Part shown: in pieces, positions 1-39,504 of the stretch
How the letters are laid out: every line of letters starts with the position of its first letter
Numbering within the stretch: position 1 is the stretch's first letter
Assembly: GCF_947072685.1 (NCBI RefSeq)
Contig: NZ_CAMTIK010000021.1
Coordinates: forward strand, 1 to 39,504
DNA: 39,504 nucleotides
Origin: an uncultured Cetobacterium sp.
Lineage (GTDB): Bacteria; Fusobacteriota; Fusobacteriia; Fusobacteriales; Fusobacteriaceae
Reading direction: 5' to 3'
The notes under the pieces: model-generated
What the model was told of the DNA's origin: nothing
What the model saw: the letters and a program-made list of their open reading frames with translations, nothing else
Database searches by the model: none
Made by a program: the position numbers and the translations under genes

Positions 1-54
1 AGCACACGACTTTTAATCGTGTTGTCACTGGTTCGAGCCCAGTATGACGCACCA
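1..54 (+). tRNA. tRNA-Lys (TTT), 5' part cut off by the window edge
   Basis: The visible part has a 5-bp anticodon stem (CACGA/TCGTG) around the loop CTTTTAA, giving anticodon TTT for lysine. It also has a complete T-arm (ACTGG/CCAGT), the 3' acceptor strand ATGACGC, discriminator A and an encoded CCA end. The D-arm and the 5' acceptor strand lie outside the window. It is the first of six closely packed tRNA genes. Confidence 0.93.
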
Positions 55-61
55 TCTAACC

Positions 62-136
62 GCCCCGTTCGTTCAACGGTTAGGACAATAGATTTTCACT
101 CTATAAACAGGGGTTCGATTCCCCTACGGGGTACCA
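62..136 (+). tRNA. tRNA-Glu (TTC)
   Basis: A full cloverleaf is visible. The acceptor stem is GCCCCGT/ACGGGGT, the anticodon stem ATAGA/TCTAT encloses loop TTTTCAC (anticodon TTC), and the T-arm is AGGGG/CCCCT. The discriminator is A and CCA is encoded. Second gene of the tRNA cluster. Confidence 0.96.
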
Positions 137-139
137 TTT

Positions 140-215
140 GGAAGCATAGCTCAGTTGGGAGAGCACCTGCCTTACAAGCAGGGGGTCACTGGTTCAAGTC
201 CAGTTGTTTCCACCA
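140..215 (+). tRNA. tRNA-Val (TAC)
   Basis: The acceptor stem is GGAAGCA/TGTTTCC (one G-T pair). The anticodon stem CCTGC/GCAGG encloses loop CTTACAA, giving anticodon TAC. The T-arm is intact and CCA is encoded. It lies 3 nt after tRNA-Glu. Confidence 0.96.
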
Positions 216-220
216 TATTT

Positions 221-297
221 GGGGGTGTAGCTCAGTTGGTTAGAGCGCATGCCTGTCACGCATGAGGTCGCGAGTTCGACCCTCGTCACTCCCGCCA
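221..297 (+). tRNA. tRNA-Asp (GTC)
   Basis: The acceptor stem is GGGGGTG/CACTCCC with one G-T pair. The anticodon stem CATGC/GCATG encloses loop CTGTCAC, giving anticodon GTC. The discriminator is G, as usual for tRNA-Asp, and CCA is encoded. Confidence 0.96.
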
Positions 298-327
298 TTT
301 AATTTTTAGATGGAACAAAAGAATAAA

Positions 328-403
<76 letters not shown>

Positions 404-406
404 CTT

Positions 407-489
407 GCGAGGGTGGCGGAATTGGCAGACGCACCAGACTTAGGATCTGGCGTTTCGACGTGAGGGTTCAAGTCCCTCCTCTCGCACCA
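407..489 (+). tRNA. tRNA-Leu (TAG)
   Basis: This is a class II tRNA with a long variable arm (about CGTTTCGACG). The anticodon stem CCAGA/TCTGG encloses loop CTTAGGA, giving anticodon TAG. The acceptor stem is GCGAGGG with its matching 3' strand, and CCA is encoded. It is the last gene of the cluster and is followed directly by a terminator. Confidence 0.96.
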
Positions 490-11871: not shown

Positions 11872-13119
11872 GTGAACATAGAAAAATTATTGGATGAATT
11901 GTATTCTTACTCACTTCATGGAATAAAATTAGGATTACAAAATATTGAAAAAATTTGTATGGCTATGGGAAATCCTGAAAGAGATTATAAAGTTATTCAT
12001 GTTGCAGGGACTAATGGAAAAGGGTCCACATCGACAACAATAGAAAGAGTACTCCTAGAGTATGGAAAAACAGTAGGAAAATATACATCTCCTCATATAT
12101 TGAGATTCAATGAAAGGATATGCGCAAACGGGAGAGAGATATCAGATAGTGAAGTAGCTTATTATTACTCTTATGTAAAGGGGATAATTGAAGAGATAGG
12201 AATAACACCAACATTTTTTGAGGTAACTACTGCGATGATGTTTAAATATTTTTCTGACAAAAAAGTTGAATATGTTATTTTAGAAGTTGGCATGGGTGGA
12301 AAATATGACGCCACTAATGTGGTTGATGCTGAAATTTGTATAATAACAAATGTAAGTTTAGATCATACAGAGTTTTTGGGAAAGACAATATATGATATTG
12401 CATGTGAAAAAGCTGGAATAATTAAGAAAAATTCAAAAGTTATAGTGGGGAGTTCTGATTCTGAATTTATTAAAGCTATAGAAGAGAAAACTTCAACTTA
12501 TACGAATGTTATTTTAAAATATGAAGATGCTACTCATAGATTGGATTTTGAAAAGTTTAGAACTTATATTGATATTCAAGGTGAAAATTATGAATATTCA
12601 CTTTTTGGAGAGTATCAATATAAAAATTTTTTATGTGCATTAGAAGTTTTAAAAATTTTAAATGTTCCAGAAGATATTATAAAAAAAGGAATGACTCAGA
12701 TTATTTGGCAATGTAGATTTGAAATTATACAGAAAGAAAAGTTAATTATATTGGATGGAGCTCACAATGAAGATGGAGTTAAAACACTTTGTGAAACTTT
12801 GAAAAAAGGATATAAAAGTGAGGAGATAGTATCGATTGTATCAATATTAAAGGATAAAGATAGTATAGAAATTATAAAAATATTAGAAAATTATGTAGAA
12901 GATATTATTTTTACTTCTCTATCTGAAAATAAAAGAGGTCAAAGTGGGAAAGAACTCTACGAAAATTTTGCAAATAAAAAAAATAAGACCTATTGTGAAG
13001 ATATAAGAATTGCATATGAAAATGCTAAAAATAAAAAAAATAAAAAAGTTATTTTGGTATGTGGATCATTTTATCTTTTAAGTAAGTTTAAAGAGGAAGT
13101 ATTAAAATATGAAATTTAA
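11872..13119 (+). CDS. folC: Folylpolyglutamate synthase / dihydrofolate synthase
   Basis: FolC adds glutamate to folates (and often to dihydropteroate) using ATP. The 415-residue Mur-ligase-type protein has the P-loop GTNGKGST (46-53), the FNERI segment, LEVGMGGKYDATNV for the metal site, LDHTEFLGKTIYDIACEKAGIIK and the C-terminal LDGAHNEDGVKTL. The start is GTG at 11872 with GGGAGGAG 5 nt upstream. The end overlaps the next small gene by 11 nt. Confidence 0.94.
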   Translation: MNIEKLLDELYSYSLHGIKLGLQNIEKICMAMGNPERDYKVIHVAGTNGKGSTSTTIERVLLEYGKTVGKYTSPHILRFNERICANGREISDSEVAYYYSYVKGIIEEIGITPTFFEVTTAMMFKYFSDKKVEYVILEVGMGGKYDATNVVDAEICIITNVSLDHTEFLGKTIYDIACEKAGIIKKNSKVIVGSSDSEFIKAIEEKTSTYTNVILKYEDATHRLDFEKFRTYIDIQGENYEYSLFGEYQYKNFLCALEVLKILNVPEDIIKKGMTQIIWQCRFEIIQKEKLIILDGAHNEDGVKTLCETLKKGYKSEEIVSIVSILKDKDSIEIIKILENYVEDIIFTSLSENKRGQSGKELYENFANKKNKTYCEDIRIAYENAKNKKNKKVILVCGSFYLLSKFKEEVLKYEI

Positions 13120-13297
13120 AGTTTTTTTAAAAATTATAAATTTCATTTTATTTTGTATAACTCTATATTATTTATATATATTTGGAAATATACTAAAAAA
13201 CGAATATATTATAAGAGAAAATAAAAAAAGAGATGTTATGGAGATAATAGAAGGGAACTTCAAAGAGAGAAACTTAGATTTTTATAAAAAGAGTTAA
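13109..13297 (+). CDS. Small single-pass membrane protein of unknown function
   Basis: I do not recognise this 62-residue protein. It has one hydrophobic helix (about residues 5-27), preceded by three lysines, and a charged tail of about 30 residues; it is therefore probably inner-membrane with the tail on one side. GAGGAAG 9 nt before the ATG lies within folC, whose end it overlaps by 11 nt, and hprK begins 13 nt after its stop. This tight packing and the ribosome-binding site support translation. No function can be assigned. Confidence 0.6.
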   Translation: MKFKVFLKIINFILFCITLYYLYIFGNILKNEYIIRENKKRDVMEIIEGNFKERNLDFYKKS

Positions 13298-13309: not shown

Positions 13310-15238
13310 ATGAGAGTTGAAAAAATAAGCTCAAAATTTCCTGAAGTTAAAGATTTGGTGGATGCTTTAAAATTAAAGCCCCTTTTAGAAGTCAATATGA
13401 AAAATGTGATTCAAACTCAAAGTGTTTATAGAGTTGGTTATGAATTGACTGGTTTTTTTTCAGAGGGGGAAGAGTTACAAACAAATGTTAATATTTTAGG
13501 AAGAAAAGAGGGTAGTTATCTAGAGAGAATGGATAAAGTAACTCGAAAAAAAATATTGGAAAAATATTTAAGCTATCCATTTCCAGCGCTGATAGTAACT
13601 TTTGAGAATGCAATTGTGGATGAAATACTTGAGATTGCAAAGAGATACAATAAACCTATTTTAAAATCAGATCTTAAAACATTGGAATTAATAAGAAATG
13701 CAAAGTTTTATCTTCAGAAAATTTTAGCGGAAGAGATAATACTTGATGATTGTATACTTTTAGATATTTATGGTGTTGGAATTCTGCTAAGAGGCTATGA
13801 AGATGCTCGTTTAGGGGCCACAGTTGAACTTTTAGAAAGAGGACATAAATTTATAACGGATACAAGATTAAAAATTCAAAATATAGCCAATAGATTTATT
13901 TTAGGTTCTAATACAGCCGAAAAAGATAAAGGAGATAGTCATTTCTATCTTTTTGGAAAAGATGGAAATGATATAGATGTGACAACTCACTTTGGGATTA
14001 AAAGTACAAGAAAAAGAAAAAAAGTGACACTGTTGATAGAGCTCGAAAAATGGGATGAAAAAAAGTTTTATGACAGATTAGGGTTAGATGAGGTGTATGA
14101 GGAATTTTTAGGATTTAAAATTCCTAAAGTGACACTTCCTGTTAGAAAAGGAAGAAATTTAGCTATAATAATTGAAACTGCCGCAATAAATTATAGATTG
14201 AAAAAAACAGGAGTCAATTCAGCTGAATATTTTTGGAAAGAATCTAAAAAATTAATAGAAGAAAATAGAATAAATAAAAAGCGAGGTTTAGTTGTGGATG
14301 AAAAAACAAGTATGCCAGTAAGATATATAAAATCTAGATTTAATTTAACTATTTTAAGTGGAGAAGAGTTTTTAGATACAAGATATATAACTACAACAGG
14401 TGTCCATAGACCGTCTTTAGCTCTAACAGGATATTTTGATATGTTTGATGAGGACGGGTATAAAGGAATACAACTATTTACCGAAACAGAGTTTAAATAT
14501 TTAGAAAGAATATCTAAAGAGGAGAGAGATCGAAATTTAAATAGATATTTAGAAGAAGATTTTCCATTGATTATAATATCTGGAGTAAAAGAAATTCCTA
14601 AATATTTTTTAGATAAGATAAGAGAACGAGATATAATTTTAATGGAAACTAAACTGGATAGACCAAGCCATGTTGTAGCAACTTTTAGTGCTTATTTAGA
14701 AAATTATTTTGCACCAACAGTTTCAGTGCATGGAGTTTTTGTAGAGTTATATGGTTTTGGAGTTTTGCTTACAGGAAAAAGCGGTATAGGAAAGAGTGAA
14801 ACTGCTTTAGAATTGATTCATAGAGGGCATAGATTGATAGCTGATGATTCAGTTAGACTAGAAAAAGGTGTGATTGGGGATATAACTGGAAGAGCTTCTA
14901 AGTTACCGTATTTCATGGAGATTAGAGGGCTTGGAATAATAGATGTAAAGGCTCTATATGGGGTTGGAGCTGTGAGAATAAGCAAAAGACTGGATATGAT
15001 AATAGAACTTCAAGAATTGAAAAGTGAAGATTATTTAACTGCGATGGATTATCAAGAATCGACAGAAACAATTTTAGGAAATGAAGTTTCAAAAATAAAA
15101 TTATATATATCCTCTGGAAGAAATGCAGCAGCGATGGTAGAAATAGCTGTTATGAATTTAATGGCAAAAAGAATGGGGTATAATTCAGAAGAGGTATATT
15201 TAAAAGAGTTGAAAAATAAAAATTGTAGTAATGATTAA
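13310..15238 (+). CDS. hprK: Tandem-duplicated HPr kinase/phosphorylase (degenerate first copy, active-looking second copy)
   Basis: HPrK/P phosphorylates, and can dephosphorylate, Ser46 of the PTS carrier HPr in carbon catabolite control. The family is normally about 310-320 residues; this protein has 642 and contains two full-length copies. Copy 1 (about 1-325) has LTGFF, YLERM and LLDIYGVGILLRG. Its P-loop has become GYEDARLGA (162-170) and ADD has become TDT. It keeps DRLGLDEVYEEFLG and VTLPVRKGRNLAIIIE (274-289). Copy 2 (about 340-642) has an intact P-loop GKSGIGKS (489-496), ADD (511-513) and EIRGLGIIDV, but its signature loop is degenerate (LYISSGRN, 598-605). ATG with AAGGAG. No ptsH lies in the window. 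Confidence 0.9.
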   Translation: MRVEKISSKFPEVKDLVDALKLKPLLEVNMKNVIQTQSVYRVGYELTGFFSEGEELQTNVNILGRKEGSYLERMDKVTRKKILEKYLSYPFPALIVTFENAIVDEILEIAKRYNKPILKSDLKTLELIRNAKFYLQKILAEEIILDDCILLDIYGVGILLRGYEDARLGATVELLERGHKFITDTRLKIQNIANRFILGSNTAEKDKGDSHFYLFGKDGNDIDVTTHFGIKSTRKRKKVTLLIELEKWDEKKFYDRLGLDEVYEEFLGFKIPKVTLPVRKGRNLAIIIETAAINYRLKKTGVNSAEYFWKESKKLIEENRINKKRGLVVDEKTSMPVRYIKSRFNLTILSGEEFLDTRYITTTGVHRPSLALTGYFDMFDEDGYKGIQLFTETEFKYLERISKEERDRNLNRYLEEDFPLIIISGVKEIPKYFLDKIRERDIILMETKLDRPSHVVATFSAYLENYFAPTVSVHGVFVELYGFGVLLTGKSGIGKSETALELIHRGHRLIADDSVRLEKGVIGDITGRASKLPYFMEIRGLGIIDVKALYGVGAVRISKRLDMIIELQELKSEDYLTAMDYQESTETILGNEVSKIKLYISSGRNAAAMVEIAVMNLMAKRMGYNSEEVYLKELKNKNCSND

Positions 15239-17522: not shown

Positions 17523-17566
17523 AATTCCATTTCTGACAGCTAAATATATTACAAAAAATAAAAAAA

Positions 17567-17683
17567 CTTGGCAACTACCTATCCTTCCAGAGGGCTGCCC
17601 CCCAAGTACTTTCGGCGTTTACGGGCTTAACTTCCAGGTTCGAAATGTGACTGGGTGTACCTCCGTAGCTATCGTTACCAAGC
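17567..17683 (-). rRNA. rrf: 5S ribosomal RNA, solitary gene
   Basis: On the minus strand, starting at 17683, the ~117-nt sequence has the 5S helix I (CTTGGTAAC with GTTGCCAAG, one G-T pair). It has the conserved loop region TTTCGAACCTGGAAGTTAAG, the CGCCGAAAGTACTTGGGGGG segment, and a 3' half ending GGATAGGTAGTTGCC. A T-tract follows the 3' end and, with helix I, can serve as the terminator. No 16S or 23S gene is adjacent: clpB lies upstream on the same strand and sepF converges from the other side. The exact ends are inferred from helix I. Confidence 0.95.
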
Positions 17684-25317: not shown

Positions 25318-26829
25318 TTATTCTTCTCTTTTAATGATAACAAAGGTTATATCGTCATTTTGTTCACAACCATCCTGAAATTTATTGATTTCAAACAGAA
25401 GTTTTTGTTTGATCTCTCTAGATGTAAGAAGATAATTTTCTAAGATAACATTTTTTAAACGTTCAATTCCAAAAAGTTCTTTTTTAGAATTTTCAGCTTC
25501 AGTGATTCCATCAGTATAATAGATAACGATATCTCCAACATTGATTTTAAGTTCTCCTTGTTTGTAACTATAATCATCGAGAAATCCGATAGCTACACCT
25601 TTTACAGAGTGTGTTTCAATTTGATGAAGTTCCTTGTTGTAAACTATAAGAGGATTGTGTCCAGCATTGGAGTAAGTTAACATTTTAGTATCGTAATTGT
25701 ATTTACTGTGCATCATAGTTATAAACATATCTTCAGTTATGTCAGGATAGATCAGTTTATTAAGCTTTCGTACATTACAACAGGGTTGTTCACCTTGTAG
25801 TTCAAGAGTTTTTAAAACAGATCTACCAAGAGCCATAAGAAATGCGGCAGGAACTCCTTTTCCACTGACATCGGCGATGGTAATACTAAAAATTTTATCA
25901 TCAAGTAAAGAATAATCGTAGTAATCGCCACCAATCTCTTTAGCGGGTTCAAAAAAAGTAGCTACATCTAAACCAAGAACATGTTTTATTTTTTTTGGAA
26001 TAATTCGTTTTTGAATTCGAGATGCAACTTCAAGTTCTTGAGACATTCTTTCTTTAATAACTAGATCTGAATATATTTGAGCATTATTAATTGCAATAGC
26101 AACCTGTATTGTAAGAGCAGAAATAGTCTCTTCATCACTTTTAATAAGTTTAGATTTATCTTCAATTATAAAGATAACTCCTAACTCTTTTCCTTTTACA
26201 GTAAGCGGAGAGGCAATAATTTTTTCATCAGGAGTTATTGAAAACCCTTTGAGCATCTCACTATAGATCTTTTTAAAATCTTGCCGAGTAAACTGTTCTA
26301 AAATTTCTTCAGGATAACTGAGCTCTCCACGAAAATTGATTTCTCCTTTGATACGTTTATTGATAAGTTTACCACCCTCCCAAAGATAAAGAGAGATTCT
26401 TTTAGCTCCAGTTAAAACAAAGTAAGCATCTAAGATGGTAGAAATAATTTTGTCTAACTCCATAATCGAAAGAACAGTTCTAGAAAGAGAGTTGATATTT
26501 GAAAGACTAGCAACTCTTTGTTCTAGAACCTGATTACTATATTCAAGTTGCTTAGATTTTGTAAGAAGAGAGTTGTATGTTACTTCTAACTCTTTTTTAT
26601 ATTCTCTTAGCTCTTCGATAGAGTTATCAAGCTCTAAATCTTGTTTAATAATATTGGTTATAGCGGCCTCGTAATCATTTTTAAAATCTTCCGAGATATT
26701 TGTTAAAAATTTTTTATCTATAAAACTTTTTAAAATTTGAGACATCTCCTCAGTGTTCTTTTTTTCCTGCTTTTTTAAGCTAAAAAAGAAAATAGCTAGA
26801 AGAGAAATTATTATAAAGTATGCAGTCAA
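25318..26829 (-). CDS. Membrane-anchored GAF/PP2C (SpoIIE-type) serine phosphatase
   Basis: This is likely an RsbU-like phosphatase that dephosphorylates an anti-anti-sigma (STAS) or similar regulator. In the 503-residue product a single N-terminal transmembrane helix (about 3-18) is followed by a coiled coil (about 70-110), a GAF-like sensor (about 115-255) and the SpoIIE/PP2C domain. The metal-binding motifs are GGDYYD, IADVSGKG, YYTDGITEAE and QNDDITFV. The TTG at 26829, 7 nt after GGGAGG, is preferred over the earlier TTG at 26844. The chosen start overlaps the stop of the upstream lipoprotein gene, so the two are probably translated together. No anti-sigma or STAS gene is present here. 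Confidence 0.87.
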   Translation of the reverse strand: MTAYFIIISLLAIFFFSLKKQEKKNTEEMSQILKSFIDKKFLTNISEDFKNDYEAAITNIIKQDLELDNSIEELREYKKELEVTYNSLLTKSKQLEYSNQVLEQRVASLSNINSLSRTVLSIMELDKIISTILDAYFVLTGAKRISLYLWEGGKLINKRIKGEINFRGELSYPEEILEQFTRQDFKKIYSEMLKGFSITPDEKIIASPLTVKGKELGVIFIIEDKSKLIKSDEETISALTIQVAIAINNAQIYSDLVIKERMSQELEVASRIQKRIIPKKIKHVLGLDVATFFEPAKEIGGDYYDYSLLDDKIFSITIADVSGKGVPAAFLMALGRSVLKTLELQGEQPCCNVRKLNKLIYPDITEDMFITMMHSKYNYDTKMLTYSNAGHNPLIVYNKELHQIETHSVKGVAIGFLDDYSYKQGELKINVGDIVIYYTDGITEAENSKKELFGIERLKNVILENYLLTSREIKQKLLFEINKFQDGCEQNDDITFVIIKREE

Positions 26830-27776
26830 TTTATTGCCTCCCAAGTAGAAAACTTACTTTCTAGTGAAGTGTTCATATCTGTATTTTTCCACTCTTTTCT
26901 TTTCCAGTTTAAAAATCGTGAAATTCCAACAGAATAGGATAGAATTAAATTTTCTTTGAGCTCGGTTGGAGAATTTAAACTATATAGATGAGACGAAAGT
27001 TTGTAGTCCTCTGTAGAAAAGAGTTCTTTTCCATCACCAACAAAGATAAGAAGATTATTTTTTAGCACTTTGAAACCAGAAAACTCATTCGAATTTTTAA
27101 AAATAATAGGATTTTTTAACTCTTGTGGCAGTGAAGCTAAATTATTTGAAATAAAAATAGGGCTATCGATAGTTTCCAAAGTATTTGAAGGATTACAATA
27201 TACAAAGTTTTTTTTCAATTTTTTTAAGTTCTCAATAAGAAGAGTTCTATCTATTAAAAGATTTTCCATTAGCAAACTTTTATCAAGTTCAGTATAAAGA
27301 TAAGATGAATTATACATCTCTTTATTATCAGTAAGATTTAATAAAAGGTAATATTGTTTGTTTAATATTTTTTGTATTTCTCCGGCATTTTCAGGAGTTG
27401 CAATATTTAAAGTTTTTAAAACTATTAAATCATTATCTGTTAAATCTTCAGCATTTTTCATTCCAATAATTTCGTTATCAATCCATCCGGACTTAAAAAG
27501 AGATGAGAGATCTTTCTCCATATTCTCATCAACCAAAAGATTTATTCCTTCTTTTTGAGCATCGTTGAGATCTTTTAAAGTTTCGTTGAACTTTTGATAA
27601 AAGGATAGTTTTTCATTATATGAATTAGGATATGTTATAGATATTAAATTAAAATTGTATTCGCCCTTAGGGATAGTATTTTGAAAAATAATATTTTGGC
27701 TGGTATCTCTTCTGTGTGAAAATTCAGAGCATCCCATTAAAATAACTAAAGAAAAAATAACTAATATTTTTTTCAT
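26826..27776 (-). CDS. Lipoprotein of unknown function
   Basis: The 316-residue protein begins with a short lipoprotein signal (MKKILVIFSLVILMGC, lipid attachment at Cys16). The rest is soluble, Asn/Leu-rich and contains no domain I recognise. It starts 3 nt after uvrC, with the ribosome-binding site AAGGAG inside uvrC. Its stop overlaps the phosphatase start, which suggests the two act together, possibly with the lipoprotein as a periplasmic sensor or partner. That link is inferred from layout only. Confidence 0.65.
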   Translation of the reverse strand: MKKILVIFSLVILMGCSEFSHRRDTSQNIIFQNTIPKGEYNFNLISITYPNSYNEKLSFYQKFNETLKDLNDAQKEGINLLVDENMEKDLSSLFKSGWIDNEIIGMKNAEDLTDNDLIVLKTLNIATPENAGEIQKILNKQYYLLLNLTDNKEMYNSSYLYTELDKSLLMENLLIDRTLLIENLKKLKKNFVYCNPSNTLETIDSPIFISNNLASLPQELKNPIIFKNSNEFSGFKVLKNNLLIFVGDGKELFSTEDYKLSSHLYSLNSPTELKENLILSYSVGISRFLNWKRKEWKNTDMNTSLESKFSTWEAIN

Positions 27777-39452: not shown

Positions 39453-39504
39453 TGGTGCCTAGAAAAGGATTCGAACCTTCGACCGCTCGGGTATGAACCG
39501 AGTG
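39453..39504 (-). tRNA. tRNA-Met (CAT), elongator type, 5' part cut off by the window edge
   Basis: On the minus strand, the anticodon stem CTCGG/CCGAG encloses loop TTCATAC, giving anticodon CAT. The T-arm (AAAGG-like pairing around TTCGAAT), the acceptor 3' strand and an encoded CCA follow. The anticodon stem lacks the three consecutive G-C pairs of initiator tRNA, so this is elongator Met. A tRNA-Ile whose C34 is modified to lysidine cannot be fully excluded. Confidence 0.88.

What the first reader, a model, noticed from the sequence alone, without database searches (positions are those of the whole stretch)
13310..15238. Double-length HPr kinase with reciprocal loss of motifs in its two copies
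The protein is two complete HPrK/P units in tandem. Copy 1 has lost the P-loop (GYEDARLGA) and the ADD motif, but keeps DRLGLDE and the signature loop PVRKGRN. Copy 2 keeps the P-loop GKSGIGKS and ADD, but its DRLG segment is gone and its signature loop reads LYISSGRN. Known: the C-terminal conserved loop of HPrK/P is important for phosphorylase activity and acts within a hexamer. Inference: the two halves may have split the functions, with one chain supplying kinase chemistry and the other the regulatory or phosphorylase surface. Three double-length chains could then mimic the usual hexamer. Copy 2 could also simply be kinase-only.
Basis: partly seen in the sequence, partly recalled or inferred. 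Interest (0 to 1): 0.72.

Follow-up and report, generated by a model that had tools for sequence, protein, structure and literature searches.

The report
Tandem HPr kinase with split catalytic site
Fusobacteria carry their sugar-control enzyme HPr kinase as two fused copies that have each lost a different part of the active site, so the two copies probably build one working site between them, and one relative has trimmed the protein down to just those two complementary parts.

Summary
The ORF at 13310-15238 (642 aa) holds two full HPrK/P units, and the motif loss is reciprocal. It is not a local oddity. 64 of 69 HPrK-bearing Fusobacteriota genomes encode the same 608-676 aa tandem. In all 64 distinct tandem proteins, copy 2 alone keeps His140, the P-loop Ser162 and an intact catalytic set, while copy 1 alone keeps catalytic Arg245 (DRLG) and the Pro of the K3 loop. 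Published hexamer descriptions say an adjacent subunit supplies Arg245, the K3 loop and the C-terminal helix to each active site. The split therefore follows the cis/trans anatomy of a shared site: copy 1 most likely supplies the trans half to copy 2. A natural minimal form (one MAG, 269 aa) keeps only the copy-1 trans segment and the copy-2 core. HPr co-evolves: the Ser46-type paralogue has Ser46 in all 68 HPrK+ genomes examined and Asn46 in all 20 HPrK- genomes that have it, effectively one evolutionary event. A split of kinase from phosphorylase is not supported, because both use one site. The tandem itself was noted for F. nucleatum in 2008; I found no published analysis of the split. No assay was possible.

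The parts
13310..15238 (+). Tandem HPr kinase/phosphorylase gene (642 aa), two HPrK_N + HPrK_C units
   Evidence: AlphaFold2 model pLDDT 84.9, pTM 0.70, matches 1KO7 TMt 0.86
13310..14287 (+). Copy 1 (residues 1-326): pseudokinase half that keeps the trans-acting elements
13793..13819 (+). Degenerate P-loop of copy 1, GYEDARLGA (canonical GxSGxGKSE)
   Evidence: Ser162-equivalent 0/64; Lys or Arg at the Walker Lys position in 59/64
13856..13864 (+). ADD motif of copy 1 replaced by TDT
   Evidence: Asp179-equivalent kept in 8/64 copy 1
14072..14092 (+). DRLGLDE of copy 1, holding Arg256 = catalytic Arg245 of canonical HPrK/P
   Evidence: Arg in 64/64 copy 1, DRLG lost in copy 2; trans role from PMC9399212
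14138..14158 (+). K3 loop of copy 1, PVRKGRN
   Evidence: Pro 64/64 in copy 1, 0/64 in copy 2
14288..15235 (+). Copy 2 (residues 327-642): catalytic half with ATP/phosphate site
14729..14731 (+). His474 = catalytic His140
   Evidence: 64/64 in copy 2, 0/64 in copy 1
14774..14797 (+). P-loop of copy 2, GKSGIGKS
   Evidence: Lys161 and Ser162 equivalents 64/64
14843..14848 (+). Asp512-Asp513 (ADD), catalytic Asp179
   Evidence: 64/64 in copy 2
14918..14935 (+). EIRGLG signature of copy 2, Glu204 and Arg206 equivalents
   Evidence: 64/64 in copy 2; Glu 11/64 in copy 1
15014..15064 (+). Segment of copy 2 where DRLG should be (KSEDYLTAMDYQ), motif absent
   Evidence: the Arg aligned in 4 copies is in YLTRVN, not a DRLG motif
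15101..15124 (+). Degenerate K3 loop of copy 2, LYISSGRN

Best explanation
This is a bifunctional HPr(Ser46) kinase/phosphorylase in which an ancient duplication and fusion turned a homo-oligomeric enzyme into a fused pseudo-heterodimer with one composite catalytic site per chain. Copy 2 supplies the cis half (His140, P-loop, Asp179, Glu204, EIRGLG). Copy 1 supplies the half that an adjacent subunit normally donates in trans (Arg245 of DRLG, K3 loop, C-terminal helix). The mirror site, made of copy 1's P-loop and copy 2's DRLG/K3 loops, has decayed. Three chains would make a pseudo-hexamer with three live sites instead of six. The substrate is the Ser46-bearing HPr paralogue encoded next to ptsI. 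Shown: the reciprocal loss, its phylum-wide conservation, the minimal form and the HPr Ser46 association. Taken from the literature: the trans role of these elements in canonical hexamers. Inferred: that copy 1 and copy 2 meet in this way, that the enzyme is active, and the stoichiometry.
For: Complementary catalytic residues in 64/64 distinct tandem proteins. Perfect segregation of one-copy-only conserved positions along the C domain, 13 vs 5, Fisher p = 1.2e-4. [quoted passage not shown] G067 minimal protein (269 aa): no HPrK_N domain found in that genome, copy-1 P-loop half deleted, but copy-1 DRLG/IPIKKGR/helix and copy-2 HGV/P-loop/ADD/RGLG kept, in the syntenic position before the DHH gene; AlphaFold2 gives one confident fold, pTM 0.86. 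Ser46-type HPr: Ser46 in 68/68 HPrK+ genomes read including G067, Asn46 in 20/20 HPrK- genomes that have it. Tree: copy 1, copy 2 and canonical units form separate groups, fitting one old duplication.
Against: No activity data. The HPrK-loss/Asn46 association is one event on the AlaRS tree (1 independent pair). The minimal form rests on one 88%-complete MAG, the only genome of its genus held. Which symmetry axis carries the trans contact was not readable here; copies cannot alternate around a three-fold axis, so the model needs the contact to be two-fold or rearranged. The AlphaFold models returned no coordinates, so contacts were not measured, and the full-length pTM is only 0.70. The trans role comes from a secondary description of the crystal structures.
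Confidence: 0.8

Rival explanations
1. Copy 1 is a structural or regulatory pseudokinase (scaffold or effector sensor) and copy 2 carries out catalysis alone or with another copy 2.
For: Copy 1 lost most of the P-loop; degenerate site keeps Lys/Arg at the Walker Lys position in 59/64; both N domains are kept in the tandems tested.
Against: Catalytic Arg245 is kept in 64/64 copy 1 and its DRLG motif lost from copy 2; the minimal form discards most of the rest of copy 1 and keeps the trans elements.
Confidence: 0.12
2. One reading: copy 2 is the kinase, copy 1 the phosphorylase or its regulator.
For: The K3 loop, linked to dephosphorylation, is canonical only in copy 1.
Against: Kinase and phosphorylase use one active site (PMC9138534); copy 1 has no usable phosphate-binding site or catalytic Asp/His in most members.
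Confidence: 0.05
3. Degenerating relic or assembly artefact without HPr kinase function.
For: One genome (G056) has in-frame stops in the gene; most Leptotrichiaceae-like genomes lost it.
Against: Catalytic positions invariant across the phylum; Ser46 kept wherever HPrK is kept; same fused ORF in 64 genomes.
Confidence: 0.02

Closest known systems
Canonical HPr kinase/phosphorylase (L. casei, S. xylosus, M. pneumoniae; PDB 1JB1/1KKL, 1KO7, 1KNX)
   Same: Same two-domain unit, same motifs, same HPr(Ser46) system; composite site with Arg245/K3 loop/C-terminal helix from an adjacent subunit
   Different: One unit per chain with every motif in each chain; here two units per chain with motifs split between them
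Fusobacterium nucleatum tandem HPrK (PMC2405797, 2008)
   Same: Same architecture, noted as 'two HPrK domains in tandem'; F. vincentii shows the same split
   Different: Reported in one sentence; the parts of the paper read here do not discuss motif loss, composite site, minimal form or HPr link
ABC transporters with one degenerate composite nucleotide site (from own knowledge)
   Same: Works alike: two halves share interface sites, one site kept and the mirror site decayed by reciprocal motif loss
   Different: Unrelated fold and function; analogy only
C-domain-only HPrK of Alphaproteobacteria and Coxiella (3TQF; PMC2405797)
   Same: Lacks the N domain, as does the G067 minimal form
   Different: Single canonical C domain; G067 fuses a copy-1 remnant to a copy-2 core

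Membership tests
HPr kinase/phosphorylase (TIGR00679, PF02603+PF07475) | HPrK_N and HPrK_C domains over cut-off | tested here: met
   both halves; TIGR00679 510.5 bits for the whole protein
HPr kinase/phosphorylase (TIGR00679, PF02603+PF07475) | Walker A, His140, Asp179, Glu204, Arg245 all present in the protein | tested here: met
   met per chain, split between copies in 64/64
HPr kinase/phosphorylase (TIGR00679, PF02603+PF07475) | Each repeat unit carries a complete motif set | tested here: not met
   this makes it a variant, not a standard member
HPr kinase/phosphorylase (TIGR00679, PF02603+PF07475) | HPr with Ser46 in the same genome | tested here: met
   L120, G000:C31:8969-9205, NGKSIMGLM, adjacent to ptsI
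HPr kinase/phosphorylase (TIGR00679, PF02603+PF07475) | Same fold as solved HPrK/P | tested here: met
   model against 1KO7: TMt 0.86, E 8e-28
HPr kinase/phosphorylase (TIGR00679, PF02603+PF07475) | Hexameric assembly with shared sites | not testable with these tools
   single-chain prediction only, no coordinates
HPr kinase/phosphorylase (TIGR00679, PF02603+PF07475) | Kinase and phosphorylase activity on HPr Ser46 | not testable with these tools
   needs purified protein
HPrK-related kinase families (NF003883, TIGR04352, TIGR04355) | Score over curated cut-off | tested here: not met
   170.8 vs 252, 17.9 vs 200, 20.5 vs 200 bits
CcpA-dependent catabolite repression | CcpA equivalog in the genome | tested here: not met
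   none over the TIGR01481 cut-off in 12 fusobacterial genomes; only weaker LacI-type matches

The most novel reading that the evidence does not exclude
The fused enzyme has one live composite site per chain, and the decayed mirror site (GYEDAKLG with a conserved Lys/Arg, opposite the conserved SSGRN loop of copy 2) has been turned into a regulatory site for phosphate or a sugar phosphate, giving a hexamer-like particle with three catalytic and three sensory sites.
Probability: 0.2. Interest if true: 0.78.

Novelty: new variant of a known kind. Interest (0 to 1): 0.62.

Why it matters
In ordinary HPrK/P all six sites are identical, so the cross-subunit contribution of Arg245 and the K3 loop is hard to isolate genetically. 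Fusobacteria have done the experiment: cis and trans parts sit in different copies and can be mutated one at a time. This makes the inter-subunit mechanism and the kinase/phosphorylase switch directly testable, and the 269-residue minimal form offers a candidate single-site HPrK. It also suggests that Ser46-HPr regulation persists in a phylum where no CcpA equivalog was found in the 12 genomes searched, so its output there is open.

Tried and rejected
Misassembly or private oddity: rejected, same tandem in 64 genomes. Kinase/phosphorylase split: rejected on one-active-site evidence. A K3-loop change at the L. casei V267 position: considered and dropped, V267 aligns to a Val kept in 54/64 copy 1. 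The HPr Ser46 association looks overwhelming by genome count but is one independent event, so it is not used as a statistic. Tandem HPrK outside Fusobacteriota: none among the matches listed in the outside genomes (listed ORFs at most 504 aa; the table was cut). Literature search for the symmetry axis of the trans contact found nothing decisive. Other papers on fusobacterial tandem HPrK: none in the CC-licensed library. rpoB species tree dropped because no rpoB was found in the incomplete G067 assembly; AlaRS used instead. Third weak HPrK_C match in G030/G032 is below cut-off and was ignored.

Full report
What is there. The ORF at 13310-15238 encodes 642 aa with two complete HPrK_N + HPrK_C units. 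The window genome groups with Cetobacterium in Fusobacteriaceae. Neighbours are MTA/SAH nucleosidase and a FolC-like Mur ligase upstream and YitT, DHH and SepF downstream.

How widespread. In 98 Fusobacteriota genomes, 69 have HPrK_C matches. By my count from that table, 64 carry one tandem ORF of 608-676 aa, three are cut by contig ends, one is broken by stops and one (G067) is a 269 aa minimal form. Most Leptotrichiaceae-like genomes (family code f4) have lost it. In 98 genomes outside the phylum, the HPrK ORFs listed reach at most 504 aa and none is a tandem. The tandem in F. nucleatum was reported in one sentence in 2008 (PMC2405797), and a F. vincentii record shows the same split.

How the motifs divide. 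Canonical numbering follows E. faecalis/L. casei, which is S. xylosus + 4. Across 64 distinct tandem proteins copy 2 has His140, Lys161, Ser162, Asp179, Glu204 and Arg206 in 64/64; copy 1 has His140 0/64, Ser162 0/64, Asp179 8/64, Glu204 11/64. Copy 1 has Arg245 64/64 and Pro266 64/64; copy 2 has no DRLG motif and Pro266 0/64. Using 30 outside HPrKs as reference, 13 conserved C-domain positions survive only in copy 2, all before S. xylosus residue 222, and 5 survive only in copy 1, all after it (p = 1.2e-4). Copy 1, copy 2 and canonical units are separate groups in the tree, so the split is as old as the sampled phylum, including the class-level outlier G097.

Why this makes sense. PMC9399212 describes the solved hexamer: each HPr touches two enzyme subunits, the catalytic site of one and the C-terminal helix and Arg245 of the other, and the K3 loop of an adjacent subunit occupies a pocket seen in the monomer between P-loop and K3 loop. 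Copy 2 therefore kept what acts in cis and copy 1 kept what acts in trans. After fusion, only one of the two mirror-image sites in each copy-1/copy-2 pair was maintained. PMC9138534 says one active site does both kinase and phosphorylase reactions, so a division into kinase copy and phosphorylase copy is unlikely.

The minimal form. G067 encodes 269 aa in the syntenic place, between an MTA/SAH nucleosidase plus SPOR-like gene and DHH. No HPrK_N domain is found in that genome. The copy-1 part keeps a first hairpin, HFDRLG, IPIKKGR and the C-terminal helices and has lost the P-loop half; the copy-2 part keeps HGV, GKSGVGKS, ADD and EVRGLG and has lost the GRN loop. AlphaFold2 predicts a single compact fold, pLDDT 86.3, pTM 0.86. 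It is one MAG and the only genome of its genus held.

Evidence that it works on HPr. Fusobacteriota have two main HPr paralogues. The Firmicutes-like one (GLHARPSSLF...NGKSIMGLM; next to ptsI in the window genome) has Ser46 in all 68 HPrK+ genomes read, including G067, and Asn46 in all 20 HPrK- genomes that have it. The other type keeps Ser46 in most HPrK- genomes too. On an AlaRS tree this is a single loss event with one independent pair, so it is consistent but not statistically independent evidence. Two HPrK- genomes carry a third divergent paralogue with Ser, set aside by eye rather than by a tree. No CcpA equivalog reaches the curated cut-off in 12 genomes, so the downstream output is unknown.

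Structure. The full-length model (pLDDT 84.9, pTM 0.70) matches 1KO7 with TMt 0.86. No coordinates were returned, so inter-copy contacts could not be measured. PMC9138534 gives the hexamer one three-fold and three perpendicular two-fold axes. Copy 1 and copy 2 cannot alternate around a three-fold axis, so the simplest assembly has each chain as one two-fold pair and three chains per particle; this is inference.

Verdict. A new variant of HPrK/P: a fused, half-of-sites enzyme with a split catalytic site. The tandem is known; the reciprocal split, its phylum-wide fixation, the natural minimal form and the HPr Ser46 link appear unreported in the literature I could search, which excludes most subscription journals.

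Noticed in passing
17566-17682 (-): A solitary 5S rRNA gene between sepF and clpB; no other rRNA match anywhere in the window.
   Followed up: no
1-489 (+) and 39456-39504 (-): tRNA cluster at one end and a partial tRNA at the other; the contig seems to break at tRNA repeats.
   Followed up: no
L182 (G081), L183 (G076): A third, divergent HPr paralogue with Ser at position 46 in two HPrK-less genomes.
   Followed up: partly
L125 (G064), L123 (G091), L122 (G092): The second, PTS-type HPr has Ala at position 46 (KAITKLL) in some HPrK-less genomes.
   Followed up: no
L079 (G056): Tandem hprK broken by two in-frame stops in a 62%-complete MAG.
   Followed up: no
about 13111-13297 (+): Short ORF, probably one membrane helix, between the folC-like gene and hprK, overlapping the folC stop (read from the sequence).
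   Followed up: no
25321-26844 (-): SpoIIE-type phosphatase with a GAF domain in a phylum not known for sporulation.
   Followed up: no
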